A DNA stretch of 64,000 bases from Aequitasia blattaphilus (GTDB taxonomy: Bacteria > Bacillota > Clostridia > Lachnospirales > Lachnospiraceae), in contig NZ_JAMXOD010000013.1 of the NCBI RefSeq assembly GCF_024721305.1, positions 40,798 to 104,797 of the forward strand. Reading direction: 5' to 3'. Under the pieces are notes generated by a model, which was not told where the DNA came from, did not search any database, and saw nothing but the letters and a program-made list of their open reading frames with translations. A program made the translations under genes and the position numbers. Within the stretch, counting starts at the first letter, position 1. Each line of letters opens with the position of its first letter. Below, piece after piece: positions 4,011-64,000 of the stretch.

Positions 4011-4762
4011 TGCGTTTAAATAAGTATTTAAGCGAGTCAGGTATCTGCTCCAGAAGAGAGGCTGATAAGCTGATTAAGGCAGGGCAAATATATGTAAACG
4101 GGGAAAAAGCCGATTTGGGTATGCAGGTAGATGATACAATGGATATATCCATTGGAAAGAAACGCATTATTAACCGCAAGGAAAAAATTGTGTTGGCTTT
4201 TTATAAGCCACGAGGAATTGTATGTACCGAAAACCCCAGAGAACGAAAAAACATTATTCGTTACATCAATTATCCGATCCGAATCACGTATGCAGGGCGG
4301 CTGGATAAAGAATCAGAAGGTTTAATGATTATGACCAATGACGGCGATTTGATTCATGAAATTATGAAAGCAGGTCACCAACACGAGAAAGAATATCGTG
4401 TCACGGTAAACGAAGAAGTGACAGATGAATTTATAAAGAATCTCTCTAAAGGAGTTCATATTCAAGATGATGAGAAAGAAATTGATACCATAACAAGAAA
4501 AGCAGTGGTGAAAAAAGTGGGGAAATATACTTTTGACATCATATTAACCCAGGGCATAAACAGACAGATTAGAAGAATGTGTGAAAGCCAGGGGTATAAG
4601 GTCACGAAGTTAAAGCGAACCAGAGTCATGAATATTACTTTAAAGGATTTGGCAGTTGGAAAATACAGAAAATTAACAACACAGGAGTTGGATGAATTAT
4701 ATGAAAAAATCGAAGAAAGCAAGAATGGAAGAGCTTGTCAGTCTCCTTACGAAAGCCGCTAA
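4007..4762 (+). CDS. RluF/RsuA-family rRNA pseudouridine synthase
   Basis: Isomerises a uridine in rRNA, most likely in 23S rRNA as in RluF. An N-terminal S4 RNA-binding domain (residues 2-60, RLNKYLSESGICSRREADKLIKAG) is followed by the catalytic domain with YKPRG and the active-site motif GRLDKESEGL (Asp about residue 100). The later QGINRQIRRM motif is also typical. Two ATG codons at 4007 and 4010 both suit the GGAGGA at 3995-4000. The 3' end overlaps ligA by about 70 bases. The last dozen residues are probably not conserved. Rsu-like specificity cannot be excluded. Confidence 0.87.
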   Translation: MMRLNKYLSESGICSRREADKLIKAGQIYVNGEKADLGMQVDDTMDISIGKKRIINRKEKIVLAFYKPRGIVCTENPRERKNIIRYINYPIRITYAGRLDKESEGLMIMTNDGDLIHEIMKAGHQHEKEYRVTVNEEVTDEFIKNLSKGVHIQDDEKEIDTITRKAVVKKVGKYTFDIILTQGINRQIRRMCESQGYKVTKLKRTRVMNITLKDLAVGKYRKLTTQELDELYEKIEESKNGRACQSPYESR

Positions 4763-6668
4763 GGCTTACTATGTGGATGCAGAAGAAATCATGAGTAATT
4801 ATGCTTATGATCAGCTTTATGATGAATTACTGGAGCTGGAAAAAGAGACAGGAATCGTTCTCGCCCAAAGTCCAACGCAAAATGTTGGTTATGAAACCAT
4901 GAGTGAGCTTCCCAAAGAAAGACATGAAAGTCCAATGCTTTCCCTGGATAAAACGAAAGAAGTCACTGATTTGATTGAGTTTGCAGGAAATCAAAAAGTT
5001 CTGGTTTCCTGGAAATTAGATGGACTTACTATTGTACTGACCTATCGAGAGGGAGTCCTCTATAAAGCGGTTACTCGAGGGAATGGCGAAGTAGGTGAAG
5101 TGGTGACGAATAATGCAAGAGTATTTAAAAATCTCCCCCTTCAAATCCCTTATAAGGATGAGCTGGTGTTAAGAGGGGAAGCGATTATTACTTATTCTGA
5201 TTTTGAAAAAATAAATGAAGAGATTGACGATGTGGACGCAAAATATAAAAATCCCAGAAATCTTTGCAGTGGTTCGGTACGTCAATTAAATAATGAAATA
5301 ACGGCAAAACGAAACGTTCGTTTCTTTGCTTTTACCTTGGTGAAAGCCGAAGGTGTTGACTTTCACAATTCAAGAGAGAAGCAGCTGCAATGGATAAAAG
5401 AGCAGGGTTTTGAAATCGTGGAATATGAAAGTGCGGCTGGTGATACCCTTTCGAAAGAAGTTCTTAAGTTTTCGGAAAAAATCACAGACAATGATTTCCC
5501 TTCCGATGGTCTTGTGTTAACATATGATAACATAGCCTACGGAAGTTCTTTGGGGGCAACCTCAAAGTTTCCAAGAGATTCCTATGCTTATAAATGGGAA
5601 GACGAGACGAAAGAGACTACTTTGACAACCATTGAGTGGAGCCCCTCCAGAACAGGACTTATCAACCCGGTTGCAATTTTTGAACCAGTTGAACTGGAAG
5701 GAACGACAGTAAGCAGAGCCAGTGTCCACAATATTAGTGTTATGGAAGAATTGGAGCTGGGGGTTGGAGACCGAATCCAGGTTTATAAGGCCAATATGAT
5801 TATCCCTCAGATTTCAGAAAATTTGACAAGAAGTGGTGTAAAGGATATACCAGTCCAATGTCCAGTCTGTCAGGGAGAGACAAAGATTCAGAAGGAAGGG
5901 AATGCAAAAACCCTGTTTTGCCCGAATCCGAACTGTCAGGCGAAGCACGTGAAGTCTTTTTCTTTGTTTGTAAGCAGAAATGCGCTGAATATAGAAGGTC
6001 TTTCAGAAGCAACCTTGACCAAGTTTATTCAAAAAGGCTTTATCAAAGAATATCGAGATGTTTTTCATTTGGATCGATATGAAAATGAGATAAAAGAGAT
6101 GGAAGGATTTGGAGAAAAATCCTATGTGAATTTAATCGACAGTATACAGAAAGCAAAGCATACAACTTTGCCCAGACTAATTTATGGCTTGGGAATTGCA
6201 GGAATTGGAATTGCAAATGCAAAATTAATCTGCAAAGAGTTTCGCTATGACATAGATAAGATAGTGGATGCCTCTAAGGATACATTAGTGGCGATACATA
6301 CGATTGGAGAGATACTGGCAAATGCTTTTGTAGAATATTTTTCAGACGAGACTAAAAGGAGAGCTTTTTTTGACTTGATAAAAGAATTGGAGATTGAAAA
6401 ACCGGAAGCTCCCAAAGAACAGATATTTGAACAAAAGAATTTTGTGATTACAGGAAGTGTAAATCATTTCCAGAATCGTAATGAAATGAAGGAAGTAATT
6501 GAAAGCCGAGGGGGCAAAGTGACAGGGTCTGTCACTTCGAAAACCGATTACTTAATAAATAATGACACACACTCAACATCTTCAAAGAATAAGAAGGCAA
6601 AGGATTTAAATATCCCAATTATATCAGAGGAAGATTTTCTGAAAATGATGGCCCAGGATGATGAGTAG
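4692..6668 (+). CDS. ligA: NAD-dependent DNA ligase LigA
   Basis: Seals nicks in replication and repair using NAD+. The 658-residue protein has the normal family length and order: Ia domain, adenylation domain with the KxDG nucleophile (K108 in KLDG), OB fold, four-cysteine zinc finger (CPVC then CPNPNC near residues 391-418), HhH repeats and a C-terminal BRCT domain (from about residue 580, FVITGSVNHFQNRNEM). AGGAG at 4683-4687 lies 4 bases from the ATG at 4692 and 13 bases from a second in-frame ATG at 4701, so the exact start is uncertain. It overlaps the 3' end of the rluF-like gene, which implies an operon. Confidence 0.96.
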   Translation: MNYMKKSKKARMEELVSLLTKAAKAYYVDAEEIMSNYAYDQLYDELLELEKETGIVLAQSPTQNVGYETMSELPKERHESPMLSLDKTKEVTDLIEFAGNQKVLVSWKLDGLTIVLTYREGVLYKAVTRGNGEVGEVVTNNARVFKNLPLQIPYKDELVLRGEAIITYSDFEKINEEIDDVDAKYKNPRNLCSGSVRQLNNEITAKRNVRFFAFTLVKAEGVDFHNSREKQLQWIKEQGFEIVEYESAAGDTLSKEVLKFSEKITDNDFPSDGLVLTYDNIAYGSSLGATSKFPRDSYAYKWEDETKETTLTTIEWSPSRTGLINPVAIFEPVELEGTTVSRASVHNISVMEELELGVGDRIQVYKANMIIPQISENLTRSGVKDIPVQCPVCQGETKIQKEGNAKTLFCPNPNCQAKHVKSFSLFVSRNALNIEGLSEATLTKFIQKGFIKEYRDVFHLDRYENEIKEMEGFGEKSYVNLIDSIQKAKHTTLPRLIYGLGIAGIGIANAKLICKEFRYDIDKIVDASKDTLVAIHTIGEILANAFVEYFSDETKRRAFFDLIKELEIEKPEAPKEQIFEQKNFVITGSVNHFQNRNEMKEVIESRGGKVTGSVTSKTDYLINNDTHSTSSKNKKAKDLNIPIISEEDFLKMMAQDDE

Positions 6669-55026: not shown

Positions 55027-55947
55027 ATGTGTAATAAGAAAAGTATAGCTTACTTAGATGTTTTGGGTTTTTCAAATTATGTTACAGGAAATAAAAATTG
55101 TGCTTATGCAGCTAACATGCTGATAAGTGTAAATCATATACTTAGAACAAAAATATCTGATTATAAAAAGATGAAAAGTGTTGAGTGTGATGAACGATTG
55201 AGCGAATTAGTGGAGAAAAATGGTGTTTCGAGCTTTGATAATTTGCTATCATTTAGTGATAGCCTGTTTATAACTTCTCCTAAAGTTGATGAATTTCTCA
55301 AGCAATTATCGTCATTTGTTGCAGAGTGTTTTTACTATCATAGCGAACAATATAGAAATCCGTTAAATGAAAAAAAACCTGAAGAAGTGAAAAGTATAGT
55401 AGTGGGTAGTGATCAGCATAATATAGTAGAAAAATGGTATCCAATCTTATTTAGAGGCGGAATTTCATATGAGGAAGTCATAGTTAGTAATAGTTCAATA
55501 ATTAAGGAGTCAGAGGTACTACAGATTCCTAATCTTATAGGAAAAGGAGTTGTACAGGCGGTAGGATTAGAACAACAAGGAAAAGGCCCTAAAATTTTTA
55601 TTGATGATCAATTCTATCATAAATTGTCAGATACTATGAAGCGATTCATTGCAAAAGAACAAGATACAAAGTATATTCTATGGCCAGCTTTCCGCTATAT
55701 ATGGCAAAATGATTTTGAGTCTGAGATTCAACATTTTAAACATGATCTTGAAGCTTGTATTAATCTATGGCTAGCATATCAAAGTGAAAGATTTGGTGAA
55801 CAGTATAAAGAATTGTTAAAGTTAGTGATACGCTCTTTTATGAAATTATGTGAAGTGATATATCCGGAGAACTATAAAACTGCGAAAGTTACAATAGTTG
55901 CGATATTAGAGAAAAAGAAAGTTTGCGTTAGCGATTTTGTGCAATAA
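55027..55947 (+). CDS. Class III nucleotide cyclase-like domain protein (diverged)
   Basis: 306 residues, no membrane segment. The order of motifs follows a class III adenylyl/guanylyl cyclase fold: AYLDVLGF (D11, first metal Asp position), LLSFSDSLFI (D78, second metal Asp position), RGGISYEEV (143-151, like the usual RxGIHxGEV) and IGKGVVQAVGLE (171-182, like the usual GxxVNxAxRLE) followed by PKIFIDD. The positions that normally hold the catalytic Asn and the transition-state Arg read Val and Gly, so activity is doubtful. The C-terminal 100 residues are helical and unassigned. The gene is AT-rich. AAAAGGGAG precedes the start. Confidence 0.6.
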   Translation: MCNKKSIAYLDVLGFSNYVTGNKNCAYAANMLISVNHILRTKISDYKKMKSVECDERLSELVEKNGVSSFDNLLSFSDSLFITSPKVDEFLKQLSSFVAECFYYHSEQYRNPLNEKKPEEVKSIVVGSDQHNIVEKWYPILFRGGISYEEVIVSNSSIIKESEVLQIPNLIGKGVVQAVGLEQQGKGPKIFIDDQFYHKLSDTMKRFIAKEQDTKYILWPAFRYIWQNDFESEIQHFKHDLEACINLWLAYQSERFGEQYKELLKLVIRSFMKLCEVIYPENYKTAKVTIVAILEKKKVCVSDFVQ

Positions 55948-58427: not shown

Positions 58428-59423
58428 TCACACCATCAGGCAATCAACGCGCCTCCCCCTCTCACGGCCAATCTTTGGCACTGAACGGCCCAGATAAGAC
58501 AACAAAAAATCATTGACATCCTTACCATAAGGTGGTGGATCATCAATGATTTCATAGTTGTTTTTCAATAATTCAGATAAGACTTTCGTGCTTACCCTGC
58601 CAGCTTTGTCATTATCCAAGTGCAGCACGATGATTTTAATATTAGGATTGGCTTTCAAAAAAGTTGCCAGAGCGATTGGGATCTTGCTGTCCTTTACCTC
58701 CTGCTTCGGCTGATACACCCCGGATAATGACAGCAGATTTTGCGTTCCCAACTCTCTATCCCCAAACTTTAGATACGCGGCATATGACAACAGATCAATC
58801 GCTGCTTCAAATAGATGCACGCTTGTCGATGGCTCTTTTGCTAACAGCCGAAAAGAATAGCGTTTATCGCTGCCGGATGCATCCCCCTTGAAATTACTGC
58901 CTATCGTACTACGGCAGGCTGCATATTTAGGCGTTCCCTGTTCATCTTTGCCTACAAATACGGTGTTGTGATAGTCAGCACTTTCATAGATTATTCCGGC
59001 AGCAATACACTCATCGATCAACTGGCGGTCAATACCACGGCCCAAAAGATACCGAATCACTCTGTCATTATTCCGGTTCTTTGGCGGTAAGAGCAATTGC
59101 TTTGGCTCTTCTTTCTTCTGAACCGGCGGCGGTGGTATCCAGTCAGCTGATCTGCCGGTAATGGTCTCGACGGCTTCGACAAAGCTGTAATCTTTGACTT
59201 TGATCAGGTAATCGAGTGCGGAAACACCGCCGATTCCTTTTGCCCACCAATACCATTTTCCATTGGAAATTTTAAGACTGGAGTGTTCTTTGGTTCCATA
59301 GGCATTGCCGGAAAAGCGAACCAGATTGCCCGGTTCATAGTGCTGCAAATAGGTCAGCAAATCCATTCTTCGTGCCTGCTCGATGACATCTGGGTCGAGC
59401 GGTACATAATTATTAGTTTTCAT
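58428..59423 (-). CDS. Toprim/DUF3991 mobile-element protein (primase-like)
   Basis: 331 residues. The N-terminal half (LLTYLQHYEPGNLVRFSGNAY, KWYWWAKGIGGVSALDYLI) is like the CHC2/DUF3991 domain of primases carried on integrative elements. The C-terminal half is a Toprim_2 domain with the acidic residues in LFEAAIDLL and IIVLHLDNDKAG (the DxD motif). It probably serves replication or processing of an ICE or plasmid. AGGAGGTGA precedes the ATG. It runs opposite to parA, although both families usually travel together in the same direction, which hints at a rearrangement. Confidence 0.85.
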   Translation of the reverse strand: MKTNNYVPLDPDVIEQARRMDLLTYLQHYEPGNLVRFSGNAYGTKEHSSLKISNGKWYWWAKGIGGVSALDYLIKVKDYSFVEAVETITGRSADWIPPPPVQKKEEPKQLLLPPKNRNNDRVIRYLLGRGIDRQLIDECIAAGIIYESADYHNTVFVGKDEQGTPKYAACRSTIGSNFKGDASGSDKRYSFRLLAKEPSTSVHLFEAAIDLLSYAAYLKFGDRELGTQNLLSLSGVYQPKQEVKDSKIPIALATFLKANPNIKIIVLHLDNDKAGRVSTKVLSELLKNNYEIIDDPPPYGKDVNDFLLSYLGRSVPKIGRERGRRVDCLMV

Positions 59424-59452
59424 TCAATAAAATCACCTCCTGAAAATAAAAT

Positions 59453-59490
59453 TAGCCGAGTGGCTTTCTGGGGTGAAAGTCGCTCGGCTA
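59453..59490 (-). terminator. Terminator of the ABC-3C-like operon
   Basis: A 16-bp stem with two G-T wobbles: 59453-59468 pairs with 59475-59490 around a TGGGGT loop. On the minus strand ATTTTATTTTC follows. It also lies in the leader of the Toprim gene. Confidence 0.8.
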
Positions 59491-59525
59491 TGTAATATTA
59501 TTTTTAAATTAGATTTCAAAATATT

Positions 59526-61577
59526 TTATTCTTTTTCCTTTATATCGTCTTCAAACAATTTAAAGGAATGAACGCCTACATTAATTATATTGGCATCTGA
59601 TTCTGGTAAGTTTTCAATAGAGGTCTTTAAATCATCATTATTTAAAGTTATTCCCATTATGACTTGAGATGATGTTTTCAGTTCAAGTATACTTTGAATC
59701 AAACTTTCCATATCAGAAGTAACAATACTATGTTGAGCTGGCTCATCAAAAATAATCACACCTGGATGATTTCCATTTTTCTTAATAGACGTTTGTAGTA
59801 AAGCCATTGTAAAAGACCAAATAATCCGAATATTATCACTTGCAGAAGAATCAAACTTCATGTCAAAACCATCAATTGTCGGAAGGCACGTATCAATTGG
59901 AATTTCAATAGCATCAATGTTGGGAGCACTTTTATATTTGTATTTGCGTAAATTCTTAATAAAGTTCTCTTTTAAACAATTGATAATTTCGATATCCGAG
60001 TCAGTATTCACATTTTTAGGAAGATTCGCATACTCTTCTTTATACCTCTTCCACCTCTTAGATAACTCACTAAGTTCTTGCAATTGCTCTGACATAAGAG
60101 ACTGTAATTGTTGATAGCACCTAATTCTTGATTCTATATCAACAAGTTTTTGAACAACGGACTCAGACCACTCCGTTTCAGTTGAGTAAATATCAGAACG
60201 TATTGTTTGTGCAAGTCGGCGAAGTGTAACTAATCGTGAACTCAGATCATTCTTTATAAGAGAAAGTCTGTCGACATTTGTCTTATGACTATCACGCGTA
60301 AATTCAAGAACACTTTTTTGCCCTTCCAGATGCCGAATATTTTCTTCAACACTCATGATTGGTATGTCCTTATTTACATTTAAAAGAGAATCTTCAATCC
60401 TCTGATTGCATGTAGGACAAACATTTTCCGAGAATTTACACCCCGATGCTGATCCCATTCTTTGTAATTTAGCTGCATCTTTATTGTTTCTCAAATCCTT
60501 TTTTACTACTTCGAGACTACGTTCTGCTTGTATCATTGCGCTACGAGAAATTAATATTTGGCTTTCACACTCGGATACTTTTTGTTCAAAAGAAGATATT
60601 GTTTCAGTTATTGTTTCCAACTCATTATTTAATGCTTCAAAATTATCAACATTTTTAGGCTTAAGGCGTTTTATCGAGTCGTGTTCCGATTGCAATTCAA
60701 ATATAGCCTCTTCCAGTCCCTTCCCGTCAACCGTAGTAATACCAATAATATCATAGTCTTTCTCTCCCATGATCTTAGGTCTTATCGGAAAACCAGCCAT
60801 AGAACAAGATTCACGATTAACACTCCTATTAATATCATCAAATACAGCCTTCCATGAAGTAGAGATAGAATCTTTAACCACCTTTAGCCTATCTCTTTCT
60901 TTTTGATTTTTAAAAGTGTCAATTCCTAATAAAAACTCAACAACACGTTTTTTTGCATCTTTAATACTGAAAAACGGCATACCAGAAAAAATATCCGCCC
61001 ATCCATGTTTTTGTTCAATGAATAGACACGAAAAAATCACCTGCAAATATAATTTTTGGTCATTACCATTAGTTTGAACTAATGGTAATTGAAGATGTAA
61101 AAAGGATTCTAAAAATGCATGAAACCCTTTATCATTAGTCGCAGCACCACCATCGTGAAGAAACATATCTTCTGGTGGAGTCTTCTGGTTACCTATTGAA
61201 TCATAATCTCCATAATACAATGTTATCATACGTGCGTCTCTTGTATCTGACTTTGCAGCTCTAAATACAGTAACTATCTCATTACCATTAGATATTTCCA
61301 AATACACCTCGGACTCCAAAACGCTCCAATCGTTTTCACCATCATTGATTATGCTTTTATATACAGAGGTTAAGACTTTCTCATTTCTTCCACCAATAAT
61401 TTCTTCAAAACCAAGACAATAGAAAATTGCTTCAATGACTGAACTCTTTCCTGATGTATTGCTGTAACTAGCAATTAAATTTAATCCATTCGTAAATCGC
61501 TCATCAAATCCATATACGCCTCCCTGAGATTCATTTGCTGTTTTTATTTCAATACGGAGTCTATTAATCCTCAGCAT
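59526..61577 (-). CDS. Rad50/SMC-like ABC ATPase with CxxC hook (ABC-3C ATPase component)
   Basis: 683 residues. The N-terminal ATPase lobe has a variant Walker A, SNTSGKSS (39-46), in which the first Gly of GxxxxGKS is Tyr38. A long coiled-coil region (about 290-510) is broken in the middle by CPTC (387-390), a zinc-hook type motif with a further Cys at 380. The C-terminal lobe has a signature-like SSASDNIRIIW (577-587) and Walker B GVIIFDEPAQHS (606-617, D611/E612). This matches the ATPase of ABC-three-component conflict systems. It overlaps the middle gene by 14 bases. GGAGGAA precedes the ATG. Confidence 0.82.
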   Translation of the reverse strand: MLRINRLRIEIKTANESQGGVYGFDERFTNGLNLIASYSNTSGKSSVIEAIFYCLGFEEIIGGRNEKVLTSVYKSIINDGENDWSVLESEVYLEISNGNEIVTVFRAAKSDTRDARMITLYYGDYDSIGNQKTPPEDMFLHDGGAATNDKGFHAFLESFLHLQLPLVQTNGNDQKLYLQVIFSCLFIEQKHGWADIFSGMPFFSIKDAKKRVVEFLLGIDTFKNQKERDRLKVVKDSISTSWKAVFDDINRSVNRESCSMAGFPIRPKIMGEKDYDIIGITTVDGKGLEEAIFELQSEHDSIKRLKPKNVDNFEALNNELETITETISSFEQKVSECESQILISRSAMIQAERSLEVVKKDLRNNKDAAKLQRMGSASGCKFSENVCPTCNQRIEDSLLNVNKDIPIMSVEENIRHLEGQKSVLEFTRDSHKTNVDRLSLIKNDLSSRLVTLRRLAQTIRSDIYSTETEWSESVVQKLVDIESRIRCYQQLQSLMSEQLQELSELSKRWKRYKEEYANLPKNVNTDSDIEIINCLKENFIKNLRKYKYKSAPNIDAIEIPIDTCLPTIDGFDMKFDSSASDNIRIIWSFTMALLQTSIKKNGNHPGVIIFDEPAQHSIVTSDMESLIQSILELKTSSQVIMGITLNNDDLKTSIENLPESDANIINVGVHSFKLFEDDIKEKE

Positions 61578-62052
61578 ATATATTCCTCCAGATATCTGAT
61601 AGTTGTTTTATCTTTGCATCAGTCAGTTTTGTCGATAATAAAGACAAGTCCTTTTTTTCAGCAGAAAGCACCGTTGATTCCTTTTCAATCTTAGAAACAA
61701 AGAATCTACCTTTGTCTGTCAGTGCATATTTCCCATTTTGCCCCTGAAAAATCAAGCCATCTGCTATACCAAAAGTAACTGCACTGTTTACTGCCGGGTC
61801 GAAGCGAACAATTGGCACCTCAGCATATTCACTTTGCGTAAAGATCAAAAGTTTATCCATTGCTTCTTTTGAACAAAGCGCAAAAGATATCATGTGTAAC
61901 TTTATTGGTAAACAACCAGATTTTCCCCAACATGATTTGGCTAAGATGAGGCAAACCTGAGCCACCTTATAACTAATGCGATAATTATAGGGCACTGCAT
62001 CTGGTTTAGCATTAAAAATAACATCCTGTTCTTCAATAAATCTCTTATCCAA
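61564..62052 (-). CDS. ABC-3C middle component-like protein (winged helix)
   Basis: 162 residues, cytosolic. The C-terminal part (VTFGIADGLIFQGQNGKYALTDKGRFFVSKI) has the pattern of a winged helix: a short hydrophobic strand, GLI, then KYxLTxKG. The N-terminal part (NYRISYKVAQVCLILAKSCWGKSGCLP) is helical. Such a protein between an ABC ATPase and an effector gene is the defining middle component of ABC-3C loci. The start is TTG at 62052, supported by AGGAG 6-7 bases upstream. It begins 9 bases after the nuclease-like gene. Confidence 0.7.
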   Translation of the reverse strand: MDKRFIEEQDVIFNAKPDAVPYNYRISYKVAQVCLILAKSCWGKSGCLPIKLHMISFALCSKEAMDKLLIFTQSEYAEVPIVRFDPAVNSAVTFGIADGLIFQGQNGKYALTDKGRFFVSKIEKESTVLSAEKKDLSLLSTKLTDAKIKQLSDIWRNIYAED

Positions 62053-62061
62053 AATTTTCTC

Positions 62062-63021
62062 CTACATTCTAAATTCCATAGAGCAATCCGCTAACCAGCT
62101 CGCTACCAAATCCTGTTTAAGTTCTCCAATTGAGGCTAGATCAACACTTGTAGAAAATTGCTCTTTTAGTTTCTTTTCAAAATCATCAAGTAAACTATTA
62201 AATAATTGTGCATTTACGGAAGTATCTGATGTAAGTCGCGTTTTAACAGAAACATCTTCTTTACAACTTCCTTCTAATTCAATCAATGCTTGATGAATTT
62301 CTGGGAAACTTAATCTTAACTCATTGAGAATTGCCACTCCACTAAGGTAAGATTTTATAAAATGATCAACCAGAAAGACCACATCTGGATCTGAATCATC
62401 ATCTGTATTCTTAATAGCCTTTATTTTACGCCGTATATTCTCCACCTTTTCAGAATCACATTGTGAGTAATCAAGAGTGGATTTATCTTTTATCGCTAAA
62501 TTTAACAAATAATCTTTATGTGGCGAAAGAACAATTTTGCTGATTTCTAATAAAAAGTCATCAGCACACTTAATATACACTTTAAAATCATCACTAATAT
62601 GTGGAAAATCGGATGGATTCGCCCTCTTTGCTGCCTCTACTTCTTTTCTTTTATTTTCAGCATGCTTTACTATTCGAGAATCCTTTTGCTCAGGTATAAC
62701 AAAATGCCATTCTACAATCGGAGGAACACCCCAATCTATTAGTCTAATCTTATAATTTGCTTTCAGAAGTTTACCAATATCTTTAGTCATTTTATCGCGC
62801 AGATGTTCGTAATTTTCTTCATCAGAGTAATCTTTCTCAGGACAGTAACATTGATGGACAACCCCATTTTGAGTGAATCCTTCAATTCCACCATCTCCTC
62901 CTTGTGCTGCTGATATAGGAGTATAATGTTCATTTTGGTAACGCATACGGTAACACATTACACACAGTTCTTCCCAAGCATTTCCGTTCAAATATCCATC
63001 AATAAACTGTAGTACATTCAT
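62062..63021 (-). CDS. PD-(D/E)XK nuclease-like effector protein of the ABC-3C-type locus
   Basis: 319 residues. The N-terminal 60 residues resemble a restriction-endonuclease fold: WEELC (E17/E18), GGDGGIEGF (D43) and VHQCYCPEK (Q57-C-Y59), a GxGGxDG ... QCY variant in which the usual Lys of QxK is Tyr. The rest is helical: a charged middle region and a C-terminal domain that would contact the ATPase/middle complex. In ABC-3C loci the N-terminal domain is the toxic effector, here probably cutting nucleic acid. It overlaps the small upstream gene by ATGA. Confidence 0.72.
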   Translation of the reverse strand: MNVLQFIDGYLNGNAWEELCVMCYRMRYQNEHYTPISAAQGGDGGIEGFTQNGVVHQCYCPEKDYSDEENYEHLRDKMTKDIGKLLKANYKIRLIDWGVPPIVEWHFVIPEQKDSRIVKHAENKRKEVEAAKRANPSDFPHISDDFKVYIKCADDFLLEISKIVLSPHKDYLLNLAIKDKSTLDYSQCDSEKVENIRRKIKAIKNTDDDSDPDVVFLVDHFIKSYLSGVAILNELRLSFPEIHQALIELEGSCKEDVSVKTRLTSDTSVNAQLFNSLLDDFEKKLKEQFSTSVDLASIGELKQDLVASWLADCSMEFRM

Positions 63022-63227
63022 ATTTCTCTGCCTCCAAAATAATTTAATGATATTGAATTTGTGAAATTAGGCCTTAGAGATAATGTACATCTGTCAACAA
63101 GATATGAATGTTCATCAAACAAATCCTTTATTTTAACAAGATGAAAGCAATCCCAAATACCTATGACCACTACTTCTCTTTGCATGAAATAACATTTTTC
63201 GCCTATTTCAGGAAGATATCCAGGCAT
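63018..63227 (-). CDS. Small protein coupled to the nuclease-like gene
   Basis: 69 residues: PEIGEKCYFMQREVVVIGIWDCFHLVKIKD, then NFTNSISLNYFGGREI. Alternating short hydrophobic stretches suggest a small beta fold (SH3-like); no named family is recognised. It is supported as a gene by a strong purine-rich site (GAGGGGGGAGA) just upstream and by the four-base ATGA overlap with the nuclease-like gene. It is the first gene of the operon. Confidence 0.6.
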   Translation of the reverse strand: MPGYLPEIGEKCYFMQREVVVIGIWDCFHLVKIKDLFDEHSYLVDRCTLSLRPNFTNSISLNYFGGREI

Positions 63228-63302
63228 TCAGTTCTCCCCCCTCTTGACAACATTTTGTATGTTAACCCACTCACCACTAAAACAAACCAGTATTAACATC
63301 AC

Positions 63303-63332
63303 TTTATATTAAATCATTTCAACATATTTCAA
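63303..63332 (-). promoter_or_regulatory. Candidate promoter of the ABC-3C-like operon
   Basis: On the minus strand TTGAAA (63327-63332) and TATAAA (63303-63308) are 18 bases apart, about 75 bases before the small gene. Confidence 0.5.
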
Positions 63333-63368
63333 TCACGTATTAATCTGTTGGTACTAATTGGTTTTTCC

Positions 63369-63377
63369 ATTATATCA
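63369..63377 (-). promoter_or_regulatory. Second candidate promoter (extended -10)
   Basis: TGATATAAT on the minus strand is a TGn extended -10 with a perfect TATAAT (63369-63374). It would give a leader of about 135 bases. No convincing -35 box is seen. Confidence 0.4.
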
Positions 63378-63411
63378 TGATTTGGCAAAATTCTCTATTT
63401 AAAAGTGTATA

Positions 63412-63443
63412 AATGCGGCATCAGCATATGCTAATACCGCATT
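63412..63443 (-). terminator. Palindrome after the truncated regulator gene
   Basis: AATGCGGCATCAGCAT (63412-63427) pairs with ATGCTAATACCGCATT (63428-63443) with two wobble/mismatch positions and essentially no loop. It lies 14 bases beyond the XRE gene stop and upstream of the operon promoters. It may be a terminator or an operator for the regulator. Confidence 0.55.
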
Positions 63444-63456
63444 ATTTAATAACATG

Positions 63457-63980
63457 CTATTTACCTGTTTTTCTAAGATACCCCACACCGTCATAACAAC
63501 CTCTAAAATAAACCGCTTCGACTTCCATAGCTGAAATCTTGTTCCTTAATCTCAATACTTCAATCAAAGCATTACATTCCTGCTCATTAAGATCACACGA
63601 TTCTTCACTATCCAGAACCCCTAAAACCTTTGGAAACCGGTCATAAAGCTCCTTGATCCTTACATTAGCCGCCTGATATTCTGGATTATCCTTTGCCAGC
63701 TTTGTCCCTACTGAACTCAGATATTCTTTAAATACGTCATTGTACATATCCACAAAGGTTTCAAATTTATTGTTCTCATCCATTCCGGCACCTCCGATAT
63801 TTTTATCTTTCTCAATTATATTACCCGAAAAGGCCGCATTACAATTATGCAAATTATCAGTTTGTCTATCATTATCTAAACCCAGCAAATAATCACTGGT
63901 GACATGAAAAAGACTCGAAAGCTCGGCGATCTGGTTGATATTCGGACAGTAAATAGCTGTTTCCCACCTTGAGATCGTCA
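63457..63980 (-). pseudogene. XRE-family regulator, N-terminus lost at an IS junction
   Basis: About 174 codons remain. They begin inside the helix-turn-helix (TISRWETAIYCPNINQIAELSSLFHVTSDYLLGL is the second half of an XRE domain), followed by a linker and a helical C-terminal domain. The ATG at 63979-63981 is formed at the junction itself: its first base belongs to the sequence shared with the IS end. The first HTH helices are missing, so DNA binding is probably lost. In front of the junction the frame is closed by a stop within the IS sequence. Confidence 0.8.
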
Positions 63981-64000
63981 TGGACCTATGTCAATACTTT
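63981..64000 (-). mobile_element. Start of a second, inverted IS copy (cut by window end)
   Basis: These 20 bases are the exact reverse complement of 58387-58406, the right end of the IS copy at 57114-58406. The element would continue to the right, with its transposase genes on the minus strand. Only the terminus is visible, so identity of the rest is inferred. Confidence 0.65.

What the first reader, a model, noticed from the sequence alone, without database searches (positions are those of the whole stretch)
59526..63227. ABC-three-component (ABC-3C) type conflict cassette
Three overlapping or closely spaced minus-strand genes encode a Rad50-like ABC ATPase with a CPTC hook and degenerate Walker A (SNTSGKSS), a 162-residue winged-helix protein, and a protein with an N-terminal REase-like motif set (WEEL, GGDGG, HQCY). 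This is the architecture described for ABC-3C biological conflict systems (ATPase, middle component, effector). The family was defined mainly by comparative genomics. A nuclease-effector member on an IS-bounded mobile segment is a plausible uncharacterised anti-phage or anti-plasmid system.
Basis: partly seen in the sequence, partly recalled or inferred. Interest (0 to 1): 0.8.

Follow-up and report, generated by a model that had tools for sequence, protein, structure and literature searches.

The report
Four-gene Lamassu defence with Tudor-like protein
These genes are a bacterial immune system of a known kind (Lamassu), but in this branch of bacteria it carries a fourth tiny gene next to its DNA-cutting enzyme, which may act as that enzyme's safety catch.

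Summary
The three genes are real and lie where stated. They are LmuA, LmuC and LmuB of a Lamassu defence system (PADLOC E 2e-28, 6e-21, 4e-102); a review places ABC-3C inside the Lamassu superfamily. The LmuA model has a PD-(D/E)XK-type N-terminus and aligns with solved Lamassu chains.

Best reading: a four-component Lamassu whose small barrel protein binds LmuA, perhaps as inhibitor or assembly subunit (inferred). The operon sits in a variable cargo slot of a conjugative element, not an IS-bounded segment.

The parts
63018..63227 (-). fourth gene, 69 aa, no database name (called 'small' here): predicted Tudor/SH3-like barrel protein, first gene of the operon; 4-nt ATGA overlap with lmuA
   Evidence: dN/dS; fold
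62062..63021 (-). lmuA, 319 aa: PD-(D/E)XK-type nuclease effector (E17, D43, E47, Q57, Y59 in place of the usual Lys) plus C-terminal helical domain
   Evidence: PADLOC LmuA E 1.7e-28; conservation; model pLDDT 88; VIA match to solved Lamassu chains and to PD-(D/E)XK nucleases
61564..62052 (-). lmuC, 162 aa, TTG start: middle component, winged-helix-like C-terminal half (weak matches)
   Evidence: PADLOC LmuC E 6e-21; weak winged-helix matches only
59526..61577 (-). lmuB, 683 aa: Rad50/SMC-like ATPase; Walker A K44, zinc hook C387/C390, Walker B D611-E612
   Evidence: PADLOC LmuB E 3.7e-102; conservation; PDB match to Lamassu LmuB 9ux7 E 1.1e-5
63031..63035 (-). GGAGG inside the last codons of the small gene, 9 nt 5' of the lmuA ATG: likely ribosome-binding site that couples the two genes
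   Evidence: read from sequence; a G-rich site of this kind 5' of the lmuA start in 38 of 59 loci, the window included
63234..63243 (-). GAGGGGGGAG, likely ribosome-binding site of the small gene
   Evidence: read from sequence
63369..63397 (-). sigma-70-like promoter candidate (TAGAGA-17-TATAAT, TG before the second hexamer), 5' of the operon; the scan as a whole found fewer sites than shuffled sequence
58428..59423 (-). DUF3991/Toprim gene: flank of the cargo slot in the conjugative element
63457..63981 (-). DUF6664 gene (with weak HTH match at its start): other flank of the cargo slot

Best explanation
This is a Lamassu anti-phage/anti-plasmid operon of a Bacillota-centred clade with four genes: small, lmuA, lmuC, lmuB. 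By analogy with known Lamassu systems, the Rad50-like LmuB (zinc hook, ATP site) with LmuC holds the nuclease LmuA inactive and senses unusual DNA, such as ends or hairpins of phage or plasmid. LmuA is then activated, oligomerises and cuts DNA, stopping infection at the cell's cost. Shown here: gene content, homology, predicted nuclease and barrel folds, overlap of the small gene with lmuA, purifying selection on it, and its restriction to one LmuB clade among the loci examined. Inferred: the sensing and killing steps (from the family) and the job of the small protein. The confidence given is for the four-gene Lamassu reading. My preferred job for the small protein (about 0.45) is that it is made just before LmuA, binds LmuA and keeps the nuclease inactive or in the right assembly state until LmuB signals.
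Confidence: 0.8

Rival explanations
1. The small protein is a fixed fourth structural subunit or DNA/protein-binding adaptor of the LmuABC complex, not an inhibitor: its barrel binds DNA or a LmuB/LmuA surface and sharpens sensing.
For: Tudor, KOW and PWWP barrels bind proteins or nucleic acid (recalled), and the matches include NusG/Spt5 KOW-type chains and a PWWP domain with ssDNA. It co-occurs with the whole system and correlates with all three partners (rho 0.63-0.70).
Against: The partial correlation falls mostly on LmuA. Adjacency and overlap are to lmuA. It evolves faster than the other three (mean identity 29% against 48-52%), unlike a typical core subunit.
Confidence: 0.35
2. The small gene is a translational leader: a short ORF kept to couple and dose lmuA translation, with little function of its protein.
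For: 4-nt overlap in 24 of 59 and a ribosome-binding-like site just 5' of the lmuA start in 38 of 59.
Against: Similarity kept across 58 aligned members, dN/dS 0.11-0.58, and a coherent predicted fold argue for a working protein. The gap to lmuA varies from -20 to +24 nt.
Confidence: 0.1
3. Ordinary three-gene Lamassu/ABC-3C; the small ORF is an unrelated neighbour that happens to precede it.
For: A three-gene Lamassu type II is active against phage (PMC8565338, passages). PADLOC, Pfam and NCBIfam hold no matching fourth protein.
Against: 62 of 62 profile hits among 12,942 ORFs sit next to lmuA. It is present in 62 of 66 readable clade members.
Confidence: 0.04
4. The operon is decayed and inert in this genome.
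For: Neighbourhood looks rearranged: IS3 next to the Toprim gene, and the relaxase-type gene seen beyond the Toprim gene in relatives is not there.
Against: All four frames are open with invariant motifs, and ribosome-binding-like sites are present.
Confidence: 0.1

Closest known systems
Lamassu type II (LmuA-LmuC-LmuB; PADLOC) and the ABC-3C superfamily
   Same: three homologous proteins, effector, middle component, Rad50-like ATPase with zinc hook; nuclease effector with C-terminal helical domain
   Different: a fourth, upstream, overlapping small barrel protein; no significant Pfam match to LmuA or LmuC
Solved Lamassu complexes (Vibrio cholerae 9uxl, 9uxh; Salmonella 9hqx, 9hr5; also 9ny1, 9nxx, 9ny5)
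   Same: LmuA fold, best over the C-terminal domain; LmuB relation (9ux7)
   Different: 7-10% identity in the structural alignment; Walker B keeps Glu here (E612 in 61/62 and 19/19), whereas the review reports Gln as general for LmuB; the entry titles seen name LmuA, LmuC, LmuB or DNA, no fourth protein
Tudor / KOW (SH3-like) domains: SMN, SPF30, NusG C-terminal domain
   Different: about 10% identity, no sequence-level relation found; no claim of methyl-residue reading
Type II toxin-antitoxin operons (recalled)
   Same: small gene first, overlapping the nuclease gene, fast-evolving
   Different: part of a larger sensor system; neutralisation untested; three clade loci have the nuclease without the small gene

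Membership tests
Lamassu (LmuABC superfamily, includes ABC-3C) | LmuB: SMC/Rad50-like ATPase related to known LmuB | tested here: met
   PADLOC E 3.7e-102 over residues 1-642; PDB LmuB 9ux7 E 1.1e-5
Lamassu (LmuABC superfamily, includes ABC-3C) | LmuA effector with N-terminal enzyme domain and C-terminal docking domain | tested here: met
Lamassu (LmuABC superfamily, includes ABC-3C) | LmuC middle component between effector and ATPase genes | tested here: met
   PADLOC E 6e-21; gene order
Lamassu (LmuABC superfamily, includes ABC-3C) | zinc hook CPxC in LmuB (many, not all members) | tested here: met
   C387 and C390 in 62/62 and 19/19
Lamassu (LmuABC superfamily, includes ABC-3C) | anti-phage or anti-plasmid activity | not testable with these tools
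   needs plaque and plasmid assays; reported for other members (PMC8565338 passages)
Pfam models for ABC-3C components | match of LmuA or LmuC above the gathering score | tested here: not met
   best LmuC hit WH_AprA E 0.026, LmuA none at E<=1; a limit of the models, not part of the definition of Lamassu
Vibrio-type LmuB | Walker B Glu replaced by Gln (called general in PMC10586767) | tested here: not met
   D611-E612 kept in 61/62 and 19/19; the review does not make this a defining feature of the superfamily
PD-(D/E)XK nuclease superfamily (LmuA N-terminus) | fold | tested here: met
PD-(D/E)XK nuclease superfamily (LmuA N-terminus) | catalytic D ... (D/E/Q)xK | tested here: inconclusive
   D43 and Q57 conserved, but the Lys position is Y59 in 62/62 and 18/18; K77 (62/62, 17/18) or K84 (61/62, 18/18) could replace it; geometry not checked
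Tudor/SH3-like barrel (small protein) | barrel topology | tested here: met
   AlphaFold2 pLDDT 79.7, strands 11-14, 17-25, 30-35, 41-45 and a short helix about 46-48; most of the 50 Foldseek rows shown, and 9 of the first 10, are Tudor or other SH3-like domains or proteins that hold them
Tudor/SH3-like barrel (small protein) | homology to a named Tudor or KOW family | tested here: inconclusive
Type II toxin-antitoxin pair (small + LmuA) | small protein neutralises the nuclease | not testable with these tools
   only order, overlap and selection seen

The most novel reading that the evidence does not exclude
A whole branch of Lamassu is a four-component system in which a co-translated Tudor/SH3-fold protein is the dedicated safety catch (antitoxin-like or assembly-licensing subunit) of the LmuA nuclease: an SMC-type DNA-structure sensor combined with a toxin-antitoxin-like lock.
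Probability: 0.4. Interest if true: 0.75.

Novelty: new variant of a known kind. Interest (0 to 1): 0.55.

Why it matters
How LmuA effectors are held off and then switched on was called unclear in the 2023 review seen here; the 2025 structure papers were not readable. A conserved extra protein overlapping that effector gene gives a concrete handle on the question in Bacillota. The four profile libraries tried here hold no model for it, so annotation based on them leaves it unnamed, and anyone cloning such a system as three genes would leave it out and could see toxicity or loss of function.

Tried and rejected
Pfam and NCBIfam searches of the three proteins gave nothing above cut-off, only SMC/Rad50-like segments of LmuB. 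Matches of the small profile in two genomes of the phylum sample (L111, L112; E 3e-4 and 1e-3) were rejected as chance: no LmuA, LmuB or LmuC in those loci, and L112 lies antisense to a transporter-like ORF (by eye). A Rhizobium plasmid hit (E 0.7) was rejected: its neighbours are unrelated. I looked for a decayed small gene in L010, L043, L046, L064 and L066. The DNA profile found none. The best BLAST piece, L064 against L008, has E 2e-5 over 52 bases; the frames there do not resemble the family by eye, so I count it as absent. Two other short LmuB-like matches among 195 relatives (G037, G135; E 8e-4) were left out of the 85 sources as trivial. No LmuB match was found in the phage collection. 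In viral contigs LmuB gave 15 loci, 4 of them with the small gene. PDB profile searches of LmuA and LmuC found no solved relative by sequence; LmuC gave only weak DtxR-type winged-helix matches (best E 0.05). Foldseek alone gave no E<=0.001 for either model; the LmuA case rests on the second look by VIA. The tree was a quick one; it warns that long branches meet at several places, and it counts 6 changes of small-gene state with the two unreadable rows included. The small profile was built from the same ORF set it was counted on; position was not used in building it. The promoter scan found fewer sites than shuffles (13 against 19), so the promoter is only a candidate. I saw no conserved operator 5' of the small gene in three groups of relatives, only ribosome-binding-like sites. 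A search of the small model in the viral fold library was not run.

Papers: PMC10586767 passages and section 9; PMC12799240 passages; PMC8565338 passages; PMC12904381 passages. Not held: a DOI that I recalled for the 2020 classification of ABC ATPases and two 2025 structure papers on Lamassu, known to me only as cited. They could describe the fourth gene. Searches whose listings (titles and starts of abstracts) showed no account of a fourth gene or of LmuD: 2 of 2 papers listed; 11 of 11; 1 of 1; none found; 15 of 19; 20 of 371; 20 of 26; 20 of 133; 12 of 121.
Full report
What is there. The nearest LmuB relatives are Bacillota. Four minus-strand ORFs follow each other: small 63018-63227 (69 aa), then 62062-63021 (319 aa), 61564-62052 (162 aa, TTG start) and 59526-61577 (683 aa). 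The first two overlap by four bases (ATGA), the last two by 14.

Conserved chemistry. Over 80 LmuA sequences (62 from loci with the small gene, 18 without), D43 (62/62, 17/18), E47, Q57 and Y59 (each 62/62, 18/18) are kept; E17 is kept in 62/62 but only 13/18. The usual catalytic Lys position is thus Tyr; K77 (62/62, 17/18) and K84 (61/62, 18/18) are candidates to replace it (the relocation is inference). Over 81 LmuB sequences, N40, G43, K44, S45 and both hook cysteines are invariant, and D611-E612 is kept in 61/62 and 19/19. The Walker B Glu is thus retained, unlike the Gln reported as general for LmuB.

The fourth gene. A scan of genome contigs with an LmuB alignment gave 79 loci, the best of 157 that encode a relative. 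With L005, L008-L011 and the window this makes 85 sources: LmuB in 85, LmuA in 82, LmuC in 82. An iterated profile from the 69-aa ORF finds 61 hits at E<1e-3 and 62 at E<0.01 among 12,942 ORFs. All 62 lie within 220 bases of an lmuA on the same strand, 5' of it in the listing. L005 (genome G029) makes 63 of 85, because its small gene lay past the end of the fetched piece. The 22 others are: two plasmid loci (L010, L011); 13 Pseudomonadota, Actinomycetota and Myxococcota loci; L043, L046 and L064 (LmuA motifs intact); L066 (LmuA without its nuclease part); and L034, L054 and L073, where no lmuA was found (two begin inside lmuB). On the LmuB tree (83 rows, quick method; L072 and L073 left out for split LmuB) one clade of 68 rows, SH-aLRT 100, holds all 62 carriers in the tree. 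Inside it 6 rows lack the gene, two of which (L034, L054) cannot be judged: 62 of 66. The tree warns of long branches that meet. The members are Bacillota, plus one bin labelled Mycoplasmatota (Acholeplasmataceae), viral contigs and one unplaced bacterium.

Independent check of co-occurrence. In 391 genomes of the window's class the small profile matches 3 genomes and LmuB (E<=1e-10) 4; three coincide, and the fourth is a short LmuB remnant (48-residue match). In 398 genomes of the phylum the small profile matches the window's genome and two chance-like places without Lamassu. I found no clear case of the small gene away from Lamassu.

How it probably works. Reported elsewhere: a type II Lamassu lowers phage plaquing (PMC8565338 passages); Lamassu is thought to sense DNA hairpins or ends (PMC12904381 passages); one solved entry is an LmuA tetramer on DNA (title of 9hr5). 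Inferred here: LmuB-LmuC restrain LmuA and switch it on at target DNA. The small protein, translated immediately before LmuA, binds LmuA and holds it inactive or helps it assemble. Support is modest: position, overlap, and a higher partial distance correlation with LmuA (0.30) than with LmuB (0.10) or LmuC (0.06) over 58 loci; LmuA beats LmuB in 85% and LmuC in 97% of 400 bootstraps. Against it: three clade members, and the systems outside the clade, have LmuA without a small gene.

Setting. Housekeeping-type genes run to 54817. After that come a 306-aa ORF, an 87-aa ORF, a ParA gene, an IS3 element and then the DUF3991/Toprim gene. In three genomes of the same family (four places, L130-L133) a DUF6664 gene and a close relative of the Toprim gene flank 1.4-3.1 kb of other cargo: a 388-aa unknown; a GNAT plus a DUF5104 protein; a weakly MGMT-like gene with a 118-aa ORF and transposase-like genes; and 222- plus 554-aa unknowns. 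A helicase-type gene lies beside the slot in all four, and a relaxase-type gene beyond it in three (the fourth contig ends first); Pfam was run on the helicase and relaxase of L130 only, the rest is by eye. In the window the same two flanks hold Lamassu. So the operon is cargo in a slot of a conjugative-type element, here apparently a rearranged remnant.

Verdict. Observation confirmed. Interpretation right in family but incomplete: a four-gene variant of Lamassu whose extra gene appeared in none of the libraries or paper listings seen here. The main literature gap is that the 2025 structure papers were not readable.

Noticed in passing
window 58428-63981; L130, L131, L132, L133: Cargo slot between a DUF6664 gene and a DUF3991/Toprim gene of a conjugative-type element; five places carry five different cargoes, Lamassu in the window. 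Could be mined for other defence genes (for example the 388-aa and the 222+554-aa unknowns, which have no PADLOC or Pfam match).
   Followed up: partly
window 62062-63021 (lmuA): The PD-(D/E)XK Lys position is an invariant Tyr (Y59) in 80 of 80 sequences, with conserved K77 and K84 in a following helix: possible relocated catalytic Lys.
   Followed up: partly
window 59526-61577 (lmuB): Walker B Glu kept (E612) in 80 of 81 sequences, unlike the Gln reported as general for LmuB; ATP hydrolysis may differ from Vibrio Lamassu.
   Followed up: partly
L013 2734-3981; L015 15-356: ORFs that look like serine recombinases or a piece of one (read by eye, not tested) lie near the Lamassu operon in two close relatives, suggesting further mobile settings.
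   Followed up: no
L013, L014, L066: lmuA frame broken (L013, L014) or shortened (L066) in otherwise recognisable operons.
   Followed up: no
window 55027-55947: 306-aa ORF at the edge of the mobile region with no Pfam match.
   Followed up: no
L010 (Priestia plasmid) 4577-5512: LmuA with Lys at the E17 and Gly at the D43 position and no small gene; next to several TIR-domain genes: perhaps an altered effector in a defence cluster.
   Followed up: no
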